This document shows, piece by piece, positions 35,723 through 44,326 of a stretch of DNA of 64,000 nucleotides. Below the pieces are notes generated by a model. That model saw nothing but the letters and a program-made list of their open reading frames with translations. It did not search any database and was not told the DNA's origin. The translations under genes were made by a program, and so were the position numbers. The stretch is from Anagrus nilaparvatae (taxonomy: Eukaryota; Arthropoda; Insecta; Hymenoptera; Mymaridae), in assembly GCA_022575985.1 (NCBI GenBank), contig JAKSXM010000132.1, positions 9,734,001 through 9,798,000 of the forward strand, given 5' to 3'. The stretch's first letter is position 1, and every line of letters starts with the position of its first letter.

Positions 35723-35935
35723 GTAGATAAGGTAAGCTTGTTCTAGGCCACCCAAACCCCTTGCCCCAGGGGGAGCGTTGGTAAAGAAGGGTGTTGCCCC
35801 AGGGGGAGCGTCGGTAAAGAAGGTTGTTGCCTCCAGGAGGCGTCGGTAAAGAAGGGTGCCCCCGACCCTTGAGTGTTGGTAAAGGGTGACCCACCCCTGG
35901 GGTGGGTTCGGTAATTAGAGGTATCTGCAAAATTG
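35723..35935. repeat. Left terminal inverted repeat with internal ~36 bp repeats
   Basis: After GTAGATAAGGTAAGC comes 'ttctaggccacccaaacccc', then four or so reiterations of a GC-rich block ending 'gtcggtaaagaagg' or 'gttggtaaag' with short hairpins such as 'gccccagggggagc'. Strong GC contrast with the surroundings. The minus-strand frame at 35715-35930 only reflects the repeat. Confidence 0.85.
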
Positions 35936-36434
35936 AAATTTTTTAAAATTATTATTATTTTTTTAATTTTTATAAAAATATAAGTTTATTTTTTATAAAA
36001 ATATAAGTTTAATTTTCCATACATTAAAATTAAAAAAAAAAAATAATGAATCTTATGCAAACTTATTTTTAAAATTTTTTGAATTTCGCGCTATAAATTT
36101 TACCAGATAATGAAATGGTGTCATCTATATATATTATAAATAGCTATAGGTGGCGTGATGCCAATCGTGATCGTTTATTCTTTACGTTTATTATTCTTTT
36201 GCCAGCTACTATAACGTAAAAATGTGTTTGGACTTGCTTCTTTCAAAAACAAATTTCTAAATTAATTCAGTGAAAAATTATATTTATTAATAGTAAATTA
36301 TATTTATTTTCAAAAGAGTTTGTACGATAATGAAAAAATTTTGTAATAATTGATCTATGAAAATAATTGCTTTATGAAAATAATAACCTTAATTTATACA
36401 CATGGGAATAAGTTTATTTTTTTAATTACTAAAG

Positions 36435-36472
36435 ATGAAAGGTTCTGAAAAAAAAATAAAGAGGATTCTCAG
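36435..36472 (+). CDS. First exon of the spliced acidic/capsid-like gene (candidate)
   Basis: ATG at 36435 opens a 12-codon basic leader (MKGSEKKIKRIL) that ends in phase 2 at AG|GTAATA. Both downstream exon copies (36559, 36989) begin after an AG in the matching phase with the codon completing Arg, followed by YF. The phase agreement supports a real splice. The start is chosen because it is the nearest ATG upstream in phase. Confidence 0.5.
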
Positions 36473-36558
36473 GTAATATTAAATTTATTTTTTTAATTAA
36501 TTATTTTGATTAACTATTAATTTTGAATTTTCTTTTTACATAACATAAAGGTGGGTAG

Positions 36559-36898
36559 ATATTTTAACAGCAGAAAAAGAAAACCAGAATTCACATCTTT
36601 GTCAAAACCATCATCACCAGCTAAATCTTCACCACTTAACTTCTCGGATAAGCTACAACAAAATCATGCATCAACTTAGTTCTCGGATAAGCTACAACAA
36701 AATCATGCATCAACTAAGTTCTCGGATAAAGTATATACAATACCATGTACAAGTATGATCTCTTATGCATCGCCATCAACAACAATTTTTCCTCATCAAT
36801 CATCATTATCAGAAGTCAAAAGTATAGAACAAAATCAACCGCTTGATTAAATGACAATAGGATCATCTTCAAAATCAAATTTATTTGATAACATTCAA
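36559..36898 (+). pseudogene. Duplicated exon, decayed copy
   Basis: This segment and its flanking introns duplicate 36989-37298. Both follow 'ggtgggNag', both start YFxSRKR and continue with 'SLSKPSSPA.SS', and both end at 'caa|gtaa'. This copy has an in-frame TAG near 36677 and an inner 39 bp duplication ('ttctcggataagctacaacaaaatcatgcatcaact' twice). It looks like an exon duplication of which one copy died. Confidence 0.6.
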
Positions 36899-36988
36899 GT
36901 AATATGCAATAATATTAAATTTTTAATTAATTATTTTGATTAATTATTAATTTTGAACTTTATTTATATATAACGTAAAGGTGGGGAG

Positions 36989-37298
36989 ATATTTTATCAG
37001 CAGAAAAAGAACTCTAGAATACACTCTTTTGTCAAAACCTTCATCACCAGCTCAATCTTCGCAACTTCACCTCTCGGATAAAGTACATCCAATACCTTGT
37101 AAAAGTATGGTCTCAAATATAACAAAATTTTCATCGCATCAATCACCATCATCATCAGACATGGGAGATAAATCTAATGTTGATTTCAAACTTGTATCAG
37201 TAAAAAGCTTTGAAAAAAATCAACTACTGGATCCAATGTCAATGGAATCACTGAATATATTGTCACCTTCAAAACTAAATACGATAAATAATCTACAA
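36989..37298 (+). CDS. Second exon, Ser-rich region of the element's spliced gene
   Basis: It is open throughout from the acceptor at 36988 to the donor at 37299 and encodes a Ser/Pro/Lys-rich, probably disordered segment. It adds 310 bases, so exon 1 plus this exon restores phase 0 for the next exon at 37364. No domain is recognised. It would lie N-terminal to the acidic region and the capsid-like part. Confidence 0.5.
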
Positions 37299-37363
37299 GT
37301 AAATAATATGCAATAATATATAATTTATGAATTAATATTTTAATTTAAATTTTTTTTTTACAG

Positions 37364-37758
37364 AAAAGAAATGTAAAACTAAATTATAATTATTTTGAAA
37401 GCCTCGCATCACATAACAACAATATAAAAAGAATTAAAGAAGAAAAAGAAAATTATATTGAAAAAAATTTTATGAAAAAAATAAGTGAAAATTCAGACAA
37501 TCAAGAAATTTTAGAATTAAAAAAGAACTTTTTATTTACAACAGCTGATCAAAATAGTGACTACAAGACTTTCAAAAAATTTGATAGCGAAGGATTCAAT
37601 TTCATTGATCCTGAGTTAATGAATACAGGTGCAAACCCATTCGATATAGATCCATTACAGAATGAAGATCAGGTTTTTATTGACGTTGAAGCTGATGATG
37701 ATGACGATGATGATGATAGTGAAAGTGGAGATAATTATGTCGAGGCTGTTGGTATTCG

Positions 37759-37790
<32 letters not shown>

Positions 37791-42902: not shown

Positions 42903-43124
42903 TCATTCAGATAAACGTGTTACTCCTATGATAAAGGAGTGTAAATATTGTATGAAAAATATGAATATGTAATTTTTTATCAATAAAACAAAAAATAACC
43001 TATATCTTTTCTATTTATTTCTCATCTCCTTTTAAATTCTGTGGAGGGGATAAAAAAGTGGGGATAAGAATATAATTTAAATTTCATCGAGAAAAGTCAG
43101 CATTCTCGTATTCGAGGTTGTGGA

Positions 43125-43255
43125 AACTCTCTCTCTCTCTCTCTCTCTCTCAAGAAGCTGACAAGGTTGTGGTAACAACTCTCTCTCTCTTGAAAATTCA
43201 CCAGATTGTGTATACAACTCATCTTCTAGAGCAAAATCACCAAGTAAATATAAAT
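43125..43255 (+). promoter_or_regulatory. Leader exon with CT repeats and a small intron
   Basis: 'gtggggataagaatataatttaaa' (43060-43082) looks like a promoter. A (CT)n run follows at 43128-43151, then a second CT run. CACCAA|GTAAAT (near 43243) and ttttacag|AATG (43303) define a ~60 base intron directly before the start codon of the next gene. The frame at 43118-43312 across this is not coding. Confidence 0.45.
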
Positions 43256-43304
43256 TTTCGAAATTTTTTTAAATTTTATATTTATAAACTTTTATTTTTA
43301 CAGA

Positions 43305-43937
43305 ATGATTAATCAGCTTTCGATTTCATTGGGGTCTGGTGTAGATCTTTGCATTGGTATACATATTATTCCAGATGTGCATATTTTAATAGCAGCATAC
43401 AATTTAAAGGATAATGAAATCATATTTTCATTGAAAGCTTTACAACAATTTAGCTCAATAAATATAGATGATTATGTTGGTGAAGGAGTAAGCATGGGAG
43501 TAGGTCCAAATAAAACCTGGCCAGAATTAGATGGAGGAATAAAAATTACAAAAACTCTGATTGGTTTTTATGATGGGGTTAGATTAACTCAAGGAAATTG
43601 TAAAATAACTCTGTTACCTAGGTCAGCTAAGCTTTTACAAAAAGCATATTCAACGATTGAATACTATTACGATCAAATAAGCAGCAGAATTCCAGAAGCC
43701 AAAGAAGCTTATGAGAAATTTCTTTCACTATTAAATGTAAATGATTCATCTGATGATGTAGAGAAAAAAATTACAGAAAATGCTACAACACCTATTGAAA
43801 AACAAATGATATTCATCTCATATGGTTTCTACAGAATAATTCAAGAAAGAAGTGAAATCAAATCAGAAACTCAAGTCAAATCAAAAGTTAAAAAAGTACA
43901 AAATAAATATAAAAGTATTAAAAAAGCAAAAAAATAA
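43305..43937 (+). CDS. Intact 210 aa basic-tailed protein of the element
   Basis: ATG at 43305 lies two bases after a splice acceptor. The protein has strand-like segments (SISLGSGVDLCIGIHI, VHILIAAYN), a conserved-looking 'DDYVGEGVSMGVGPNKTWPELDGGI', and 'GFYDGVRLTQGNCKITLLPRSA'. A helical middle and a very basic tail (KSKVKKVQNKYKSIKKAKK) follow. The tail suggests nucleic-acid binding. I recall similar insect proteins beside capsid-like genes and wondered about the PC4/p15 single-strand-DNA-binding fold, but no key residue settles it. This is the only fully open gene in the element, with 'aataaataaatg' after the stop. Confidence 0.65.
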   Translation: MINQLSISLGSGVDLCIGIHIIPDVHILIAAYNLKDNEIIFSLKALQQFSSINIDDYVGEGVSMGVGPNKTWPELDGGIKITKTLIGFYDGVRLTQGNCKITLLPRSAKLLQKAYSTIEYYYDQISSRIPEAKEAYEKFLSLLNVNDSSDDVEKKITENATTPIEKQMIFISYGFYRIIQERSEIKSETQVKSKVKKVQNKYKSIKKAKK

Positions 43938-44067
43938 TTTTAATAAATAAATGTTTTAATTATATTTCATTCTTTTTTTTTTTATTTTTATCCCCACCCT
44001 TCCCACATAAAAGATTACTAATAAGACCTAATTACTTAGGTCATGTTAGTAATCTTTTATTACATAT

Positions 44068-44152
44068 GCTGCGGTATCCAAGTGGTTAAGGGTTGCTATC
44101 GAGGGCAATGGGTTAACAAAAACCCGCGCAGGTTCGAACCCTGCCCGCAGCG
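44068..44152 (+). tRNA. tRNA-Ser(CGA)-like gene inside the element
   Basis: The acceptor stem GCTGCGG/CCGCAGC is perfect. The D-arm region is TCCAAGTGGTTAAGGG. The anticodon arm is TTGCT-ATCGAG-GGCAA. A long variable arm GGGTT/AACCC marks a type II tRNA, and the T arm is GCAGG-TTCGAAC-CCTGC. The B box GGTTCGAACCC is canonical. A T run at 44157-44164 would end RNA polymerase III transcription. The anticodon loop has six bases instead of seven, with CGA after T33. No intron and no CCA. It lies just inside the right terminal repeat. It could be a captured host gene or a functional part of the element. The short loop makes normal decoding doubtful. Confidence 0.8.
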
Positions 44153-44156
44153 AAAA

Positions 44157-44164
44157 TTTTTTTT
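44157..44164 (+). terminator. RNA polymerase III T-run
   Basis: Eight T follow the tRNA-like gene after four A, the usual position for polymerase III termination. A shorter T-run elsewhere in this A/T-rich DNA would mean little, but the spacing to the tRNA end is right. Confidence 0.55.
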
Positions 44165-44326
44165 ACCAACAACTATCTACATTACCGACTTGCTTCTACT
44201 TTACCGACACACTCCTAGGGTAACTCTCTTCTTTACCGACGCCCCCTGGAGGCAACAACCTTCTTTACCGACGCTCCCCCTGGGGCAAGGGGTTTGGGTG
44301 GCCTAGAACCGGCTTACCTTATCTAC
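44165..44326. repeat. Right terminal inverted repeat
   Basis: This is the inverse of 35723-35935: 'ctttaccgacgctccccctggggc', 'ccccaaaccc'-type words read inverted as 'ggggtttgggtggcctagaa', and the end GCTTACCTTATCTAC. The two ends differ by small substitutions and in the number of inner repeats, so they are not freshly copied. Confidence 0.85.

What the first reader, a model, noticed from the sequence alone, without database searches (positions are those of the whole stretch)
35723..44326. 8.6 kb virus-like element with inverted ends, 8 bp duplication, capsid-like genes and no visible polymerase or integrase
The ends, the TTAAACCA duplication and the interrupted piggyBac frame define the element exactly. 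Its plus-strand genes (spliced acidic/capsid-like, nuclease-like, basic-tailed 210 aa) form a set I do not know as a described transposon family. The 8 bp duplication does not fit Polintons. The native length is only about 5.3 kb. It may be a satellite-type or minimal virus-derived element that uses another element's machinery.
Basis: partly seen in the sequence, partly recalled or inferred. Interest (0 to 1): 0.9.

Follow-up and report, generated by a model that had tools for sequence, protein, structure and literature searches.

The report
Broken, shortened Polinton (Maverick) copy
The element is a worn-out, internally deleted copy of a Polinton/Maverick, a virus-like jumping element, whose longer relatives in the same (probably insect) genome still carry the missing polymerase and integrase genes.

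Summary
The element is real, but its kind is known. The "8 bp duplication" is a 6-bp duplication, TAAACC, beside a terminal A/T belonging to the inverted repeat, plus two chance matches. Longer relatives with the same ends encode a retroviral-type integrase, type B polymerase, packaging ATPase, phospholipase A2 and the double-jelly-roll capsid. The window copy is an internally deleted Polinton/Maverick: it keeps one end gene and the capsid end, interrupted by a LINE fragment and a Penelope-like insert. Its capsid and "nuclease" genes are broken; the 210-aa gene is open.

Three family features look less ordinary. (1) The "nuclease" has a DnaQ/Maelstrom-type fold with a Maelstrom-like E-C-H-C set and lost catalytic residues. 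(2) A tRNA-like gene lies just inside the ends of many copies of this branch. (3) A class with 11-14 kb between its tRNA-like copies keeps integrase and capsid but shows no polymerase: of 10 measured elements, 10 have integrase and 0 a listed polymerase match.

The parts
35716..35721 (.). left copy of the 6-bp target-site duplication TAAACC
   Evidence: read from the sequence; 6-bp frame set by the relatives
44328..44333 (.). right copy of the duplication TAAACC
35722..35854 (+). left terminal inverted repeat, begins AGTAGATAAGG, with three 33-bp tandem units
44196..44327 (-). right terminal inverted repeat
35921..36235 (+). stretch just inside the left repeat, shared with the polymerase-side end of the C1 relative
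   Evidence: 73% identical over 331 columns to L036 357-659, E 1e-43
36549..38736 (+). remains of the spliced acidic end gene (open pieces 36549-36758, 36957-37316, 37349-37762, then 38611-38736); homologue of the end gene on the polymerase side of the 20-kb relatives
   Evidence: open frames; 38611-38730 is 40% identical over 40 residues to L036 2035-2154, E 3e-8, and 38569-38730 35% over 54 to L040; no match within 36549-37762 in that call
37763..38457 (-). nested R1-type LINE 3' fragment (name from recall) with poly(T) and 11-bp duplication GTATTCGAGAT (37752-37762, 38458-38468)
   Evidence: read; a second fragment at 40390-40776 matches zf-RVT weakly, E 0.004, below cut-off
38737..41368 (.). 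nested insert with long inverted arms (38764-39056 with 41087-41379) and a GIY-YIG-like reading frame, called Penelope-like from recall; holds a second R1-type fragment at about 40193-41088
   Evidence: 40193-41088 is 98.7% identical to a stretch of L040; no Pfam GIY-YIG match
41369..42155 (+). C-terminal three quarters of the double-jelly-roll major capsid protein, broken by an in-frame stop at 41883-41885
   Evidence: PF21738 positions 82-239 and 241-316; DNA 91-93% identical to five relatives from 41369 on
42233..42902 (+). broken gene for a DnaQ/Maelstrom-type fold protein (frame change near 42516-42541)
   Evidence: the two pieces align with P0054-P0064; fold of the homologue P0055
43305..43937 (+). 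open gene for the 210-aa basic-tailed protein, function unknown
   Evidence: 3 homologues with E <= 0.01 in 5.77 billion proteins; model failed, pLDDT 41
44067..44153 (+). tRNA-Ser-like gene with a 6-base anticodon loop, followed by a T run
   Evidence: ARAGORN; shared by the 27 copies aligned, which were chosen because they match; no Rfam match at gathering score
44335..45450 (+). piggyBac transposase remains flanking the insertion (outside the element)
   Evidence: PF13843 on 44663-44878 and 44882-45055; none on 44413-44571 and 45226-45450

Best explanation
The 8.6-kb element is a defective Polinton/Maverick (adintovirus-like) copy. A roughly 20-kb parent inserted by its retroviral-type integrase into a piggyBac remnant, making a 6-bp duplication. 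About 16 kb of its middle (polymerase, integrase, ATPase, phospholipase, a minor-capsid candidate and the capsid N-terminus) is gone, joining the acidic end gene to the capsid gene. A Penelope-like element lies at the junction and an R1-type LINE fragment in the acidic gene. Shown: ends, duplication, homology of both halves to the two ends of one relative in the same order and orientation, and broken frames. Inferred: that integrase made the insertion, that deletion preceded the nested insert, and that any later movement of such a copy would need proteins from intact relatives acting on its ends.
For: Relatives with the same termini carry rve integrase (E 1e-15) plus Chromo (E 2e-4, below cut-off), DNA_pol_B_2 (1e-17), Pox_A32 ATPase (4e-8), Phospholip_A2_4 (2e-7) and the full PF21738 domain (3e-97). 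Of 15 query stretches taken from C1 and C235 (the polymerase in three), 15 are found in C1, 14 in C235 and 15 in C196 at 7.13 Mb. Window 41369-44327 is 91-93% identical to the capsid end of five relatives, and 35921-36235 is 73% identical to the other end of C1; 38611-38730 matches that end's gene. Exact 6-bp duplications in 9 of 11 measured copies. Published Maverick signature: 6-bp duplication, (AGT)2//(ACT)2 ends (PMC8097293, passages). Mavericks are on record as abundant in braconid wasps (PMC6035795, passages).
Against: No relative with the window's version of the left half was found: DNA of 36100-37760 could not be searched in the genome because the tool stayed busy, and the left-half matches are weak (73% DNA over 315 bases, 40% over 40 residues). 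So the left end may come from a diverged subfamily, or the copy may be a recombinant of two elements. That the nested insert lies exactly at the deletion junction is unexplained. No maturation protease was recognised in the 18 ORFs of relatives that I scanned.
Confidence: 0.92

Rival explanations
1. The window copy descends from a native, mobile, polymerase-free satellite form that used another element's enzymes, and only later decayed.
For: Polymerase-free elements of the same family exist: 10 elements with 11.2-14.3 kb between their tRNA-like copies hold integrase in 10 of 10 and a listed polymerase match in 0 of 10, and 4 of 5 read at their ends have exact 6-bp duplications.
Against: The three of those read inside keep integrase and ATPase and have the capsid-end sequence at both ends, unlike the window copy, whose left end is the acidic-gene end. 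The capsid gene in the window is cut inside its domain.
Confidence: 0.1
2. A recombinant: the left half from one Polinton subfamily and the right half from another, joined through the nested insert copies.
For: Left half is only distantly similar to the fetched relatives (73% DNA over 35921-36235; 40% over 40 residues) while the right half is 91-93% identical at DNA level; the nested insert sits at the join.
Against: Both ends keep a common 6-bp duplication, which an unequal exchange between two inserted copies would normally destroy; end genes may simply evolve faster.
Confidence: 0.25
3. A new transposon superfamily with 8-bp duplication (hAT-, P- or KDZ-like) that captured capsid genes.
For: The repeat TTAAACCA at both junctions is 8 bp.
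Against: The outer A/T is present in 22 of 23 distinct ends; 6-bp duplications in 9 of 11 copies; relatives encode a retroviral-type integrase.
Confidence: 0.01

Closest known systems
Polinton/Maverick elements
   Same: 6-bp duplication, AGT-type termini, rve integrase with chromodomain, type B polymerase, A32-type ATPase, double-jelly-roll capsid (in the relatives)
   Different: the window copy lacks polymerase, integrase and ATPase, most likely by deletion; no maturation protease recognised in the relatives; the family carries a Maelstrom-like protein and, in this branch, a tRNA-like gene
Adintoviruses (e.g. Drosophila-associated adintovirus 2, 13.3 kb, near-complete; PMC8363768, passages)
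   Same: integrase with C-terminal chromodomain and polymerase in the relatives; the Maelstrom-like protein's best viral structure match is an uncharacterised protein of Drosophila-associated adintovirus 2 (E 8.5e-13, 28% identity)
   Different: the adintovirus-defining N-terminal OTU-like part of the polymerase and reciprocal hexon matches (PMC11071296, passages) were not tested
Maelstrom MAEL domain (piRNA pathway)
Polinton-like viruses with tRNA genes (PMC12220804, one section read)
   Same: a small capsid-encoding mobile element that carries a tRNA gene
   Different: here the tRNA-like gene lies beside the terminal repeat in the copies aligned and has an abnormal 6-base anticodon loop

Membership tests
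Polinton/Maverick | 6-bp target-site duplication | tested here: met
   TAAACC in the window; 9 of 11 measured copies exact, one of them in a T run
Polinton/Maverick | terminal inverted repeats with AG/AGT...ACT/CT ends | tested here: met
   AGTAGATAAGG...CCTTATCTACT; 22 of 23 distinct ends have the outer A/T
Polinton/Maverick | double-jelly-roll major capsid protein | tested here: met
   PF21738, window pieces; complete in a relative; in the window the N-terminal quarter is missing
Polinton/Maverick | rve integrase and type B polymerase inside the element | tested here: not met
   none in the window copy; both present in three 20-26 kb relatives with the same ends. Hence: a defective derivative of a Polinton, not an autonomous Polinton
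Polinton/Maverick | A32/FtsK-type packaging ATPase | tested here: not met
   no match among the nine window ORFs scanned; present in five of six fetched relatives
Polinton/Maverick | adenovirus-type maturation protease and minor capsid protein | tested here: inconclusive
   no Pfam match among the 18 ORFs of relatives scanned; a 215-aa ORF between phospholipase and capsid is an unassigned candidate for the minor capsid
Adintovirus | integrase with C-terminal chromodomain | tested here: inconclusive
   in relatives, Chromo E 2e-4 and 4e-4, both below the Pfam cut-off; absent from the window copy
Adintovirus | polymerase with N-terminal OTU-like domain; hexon found by reciprocal BLASTP | not tested
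   no adintovirus reference proteins were compared by sequence
Maelstrom (MAEL domain), for the 'nuclease' gene | DnaQ/RNase H-like fold | tested here: met
Maelstrom (MAEL domain), for the 'nuclease' gene | E-C-H-C zinc set | tested here: met
   E21 in 10 of 10, C134 in 12 of 12, H137 in 10 of 11, C144 in 10 of 10 rows with a residue, among 13 rows of which two are the window's pieces; both motifs in 9 of 9 ORFs of this genome that I checked. Zinc binding itself is not testable here
Maelstrom (MAEL domain), for the 'nuclease' gene | sequence-profile match to Maelstrom | tested here: not met
   no Maelstrom family among the matches of 13 members scanned against Pfam
tRNA-Ser | 7-base anticodon loop and tRNA covariance-model score | tested here: not met
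   6-base loop; no Rfam match at gathering score. It is tRNA-like, not a normal tRNA gene

The most novel reading that the evidence does not exclude
This genome hosts a polymerase-free branch of Polintons: complete units of about 12 kb with capsid, packaging ATPase, phospholipase and integrase but no polymerase, with the capsid-end sequence (tRNA-like gene included) at both ends. Among the integrase loci closest to this family it outnumbers its polymerase-bearing sisters, and it spreads as a capsid-carrying satellite that borrows their, or the host's, polymerase. The family also carries a Maelstrom-like dead exonuclease that could blunt piRNA silencing, and a Pol III tRNA-like RNA comparable in place to adenovirus VA RNA (recalled).
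Probability: 0.45. Interest if true: 0.8.

Novelty: new variant of a known kind. Interest (0 to 1): 0.5.

Why it matters
The window copy itself removes a false lead: one accidental 8-bp match nearly made a Polinton look like a new transposon class. Its family matters more. If the polymerase-free 12-kb class really moves on its own ends, Polintons have evolved satellites with their own capsid and integrase inside an animal genome, which would let the virus-versus-transposon question be studied as a helper-satellite pair. A Maelstrom-like protein next to the capsid gene would be a possible element-encoded piece of the piRNA conflict, testable with small-RNA data.

Tried and rejected
New 8-bp superfamily: rejected. 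The 210-aa protein as a DNA-binding fold: no Pfam match above cut-off (weak Myb-like rows E 0.26 and 0.54), model too poor to search. Rfam: 0 matches at gathering in the window and eight loci. IMG/VR scans with the 210-aa protein, the capsid piece and a tRNA-like 31-mer found no relative. PHROGs: best E 0.029. "Active nuclease": the D-x-E motif reads D-x-Q in 10 of 10 rows, and by eye I found no clear second catalytic aspartate, so activity is unlikely but not excluded. tRNA-like gene as a general feature: not found by ARAGORN within the 1.8-2.1 kb fetched downstream of the gene in 5 of 5 diverged subfamilies; whether those stretches reach the element ends is not known. ARAGORN itself misses diverged copies: L011 holds one by BLAST that one search does not list, and two aligned rows (L054, L071) have a rearranged anticodon arm. 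Conservation of the tRNA-like stretch is not higher than that of its upstream flank over the 27 copies (20 of 86 variable columns against 16 of 68; downstream 10 of 26), so the support for it as an RNA is structural only: one acceptor pair with UA 11, CG 9, UG 4 among 24 distinct rows, 99.3% of cells paired, but only 1 pair with changes on both sides, which 151 of 500 shuffles reach; the rows are closely related. Papers: 2 papers hold both Maelstrom and Polinton, and neither listing suggests a Polinton-encoded Maelstrom-like protein (listing only); six phrases for Polintons without PolB gave 0 papers with two terms. Most subscription papers are not in that library. Polymerase absence: one search scored only 83 of 370 candidates, so it was not used; one search scored 150 of 318 and lists 150 of 153 matches, down to 39% identity. 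Penelope-like, GIY-YIG and R1 names rest on recall plus weak or no Pfam support.
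Full report
What is there. The inverted ends are real. The left repeat holds three 33-bp units. A search with the left end gave 31 matches in the 489-Mb genome, from which 11 distinct left and 12 distinct right ends could be read (up to two mismatches in the 15-base end). All 11 left ends have A before GTAGATAAGG, and 11 of 12 right ends have T after CCTTATCTAC. With this base counted as part of the element, six copies with both ends show 6-bp duplications: TAAACC (window), GATATC, AATATG, ACTATT and AACCTA exactly, and TACGTT/TACGTA with one difference.

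What it belongs to. Three relatives of about 20-26 kb (C1, C235, C196 at 7.13 Mb) carry, between the same ends, type B polymerase, rve integrase with a weak Chromo match, Pox_A32-type ATPase, Phospholip_A2_4, the PF21738 capsid protein (423 aa in C235), a 215-aa ORF, the "nuclease", the 210-aa protein and several unassigned ORFs (Pfam was run on one representative of each). This is the Polinton/Maverick gene set, and the 6-bp duplication and AGT/ACT ends agree with the Maverick description in PMC8097293 (passages). Two other fetched relatives (C196 at 18.79 Mb, C337) have the capsid half and integrase but none of the polymerase queries, and one (C95 at 17.3 Mb, 18.4 kb) matched only 1 of 15 queries, the acidic gene, at 30%.

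How the window copy came about. From 41369 to its right end the window is 91-93% identical to the capsid ends of five relatives, and 35921-36235 is 73% identical to the inside of the other end of C1. Left of the nested insert, 38611-38730 matches the end gene of C1 (40% over 40 residues, E 3e-8) and 38569-38730 that of C196 at 7.13 Mb (35% over 54). Order and orientation are those of C1, in whose coordinates about 15.9 kb is missing (my arithmetic). The join lies at a nested insert with long inverted arms; AAAAAATTTATC occurs on both sides of it, so the deletion probably came first and the insert duplicated the join, but the coincidence of the two is unexplained. The capsid frame has a stop, the Maelstrom-like gene has a frame change, and the 210-aa gene is open. 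The copy is best read as dead; if it moves at all it would be through enzymes of relatives acting on its ends (inference).

The tRNA-like gene. ARAGORN finds it at 44067-44153 and, among 36 loci scanned, at nine distinct ends including the window's. The 27 copies aligned were chosen because they match; some are capsid ends and some are the opposite ends of their elements. In 24 distinct rows 99.3% of the cells of a tRNA-Ser-like cloverleaf are paired, with one acceptor pair in three states. At least 40 near-full copies exist (40 of 163 candidates scored). Its loop has 6 bases and Rfam does not call it, so normal decoding is unlikely; a Pol III RNA is a guess. It was not found in the stretches fetched from five diverged subfamilies. 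tRNA genes in other Polinton-like viruses are on record (PMC12220804, one section read).

The polymerase-free class. Among the 40 tRNA-like copies, 10 inverted pairs span 11.2-14.3 kb, each with one listed capsid locus. None of 10 holds a polymerase match among the 150 listed, the nearest lying over 500 kb away, and all 10 hold an integrase of 95% identity or more. For two pairs the gene content was read over the whole span, and for a third its integrase half (which also shows a FLYWCH-like ORF, E 0.003, below cut-off). Five pairs were read at their ends: 4 of 5 have exact 6-bp duplications, one of these in a T run, with repeats 92-100% identical; the fifth did not align to its tip. Genome-wide, 66 of 126 capsid loci have a listed polymerase match within 15 kb and 60 do not; of 46 integrase loci at 95% identity or more, 12 have one within 15 kb, and the count is also 12 at 30 kb. 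Lists are lower bounds, so the fractions are approximate. Whether these copies still move was not tested.

Host. Named relatives of the capsid piece are nearly all Hymenoptera, with one phylloxera and one partial sequence filed under a bacterium (50 proteins, most unnamed), so a hymenopteran host is likely (inference).

Noticed in passing
G000 C342:1971401-1983360, C113:14349770-14361256, C147:15040140-15052133, C196:21134312-21146265 and C317:31046937-31058742 (aligned part) (L072-L081, L051): Polymerase-free Polinton-type elements of about 11.5-12.0 kb; 4 of 5 have an exact 6-bp duplication, and the tRNA-like sequence is at both ends.
   Followed up: partly
G000 C95:17337743-17356128 (L044, L045): An 18.4-kb unit with the same inverted ends and a near-match duplication (5 of 6 bases) that matched only 1 of 15 family queries, the acidic gene at 30%: other cargo between Polinton ends.
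   Followed up: no
G000, whole genome: At least 126 double-jelly-roll capsid loci; about 105 of the 126 rows show no stop (my count by eye) and several have identical scores, which suggests recent activity (126 of 371 candidates scored).
   Followed up: partly
BFVD matches A2PZZ9, A2PZT5, S5DRE3, S5DMS0: The Maelstrom-like protein also matches ORFs of two ichnoviruses (E 8.5e-12 to 1.3e-8), hinting at related genes in packaged wasp virus segments.
   Followed up: no
window 36480-36662 and 36910-37092: A 183-nt stretch duplicated at 84% identity in the acidic gene, with 39-bp tandem repeats at 36637-36729: exon duplication in the end gene.
   Followed up: no
window 44007-44060 and copies: A hairpin of about 54 bases immediately upstream of the tRNA-like gene (the stretch matches its own reverse complement at 89%), purpose unknown.
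   Followed up: no
window 34096-34440: Several copies of a short palindromic motif built on CATGGGCGC/GCGCCCATG in an AT-rich stretch left of the element.
   Followed up: no
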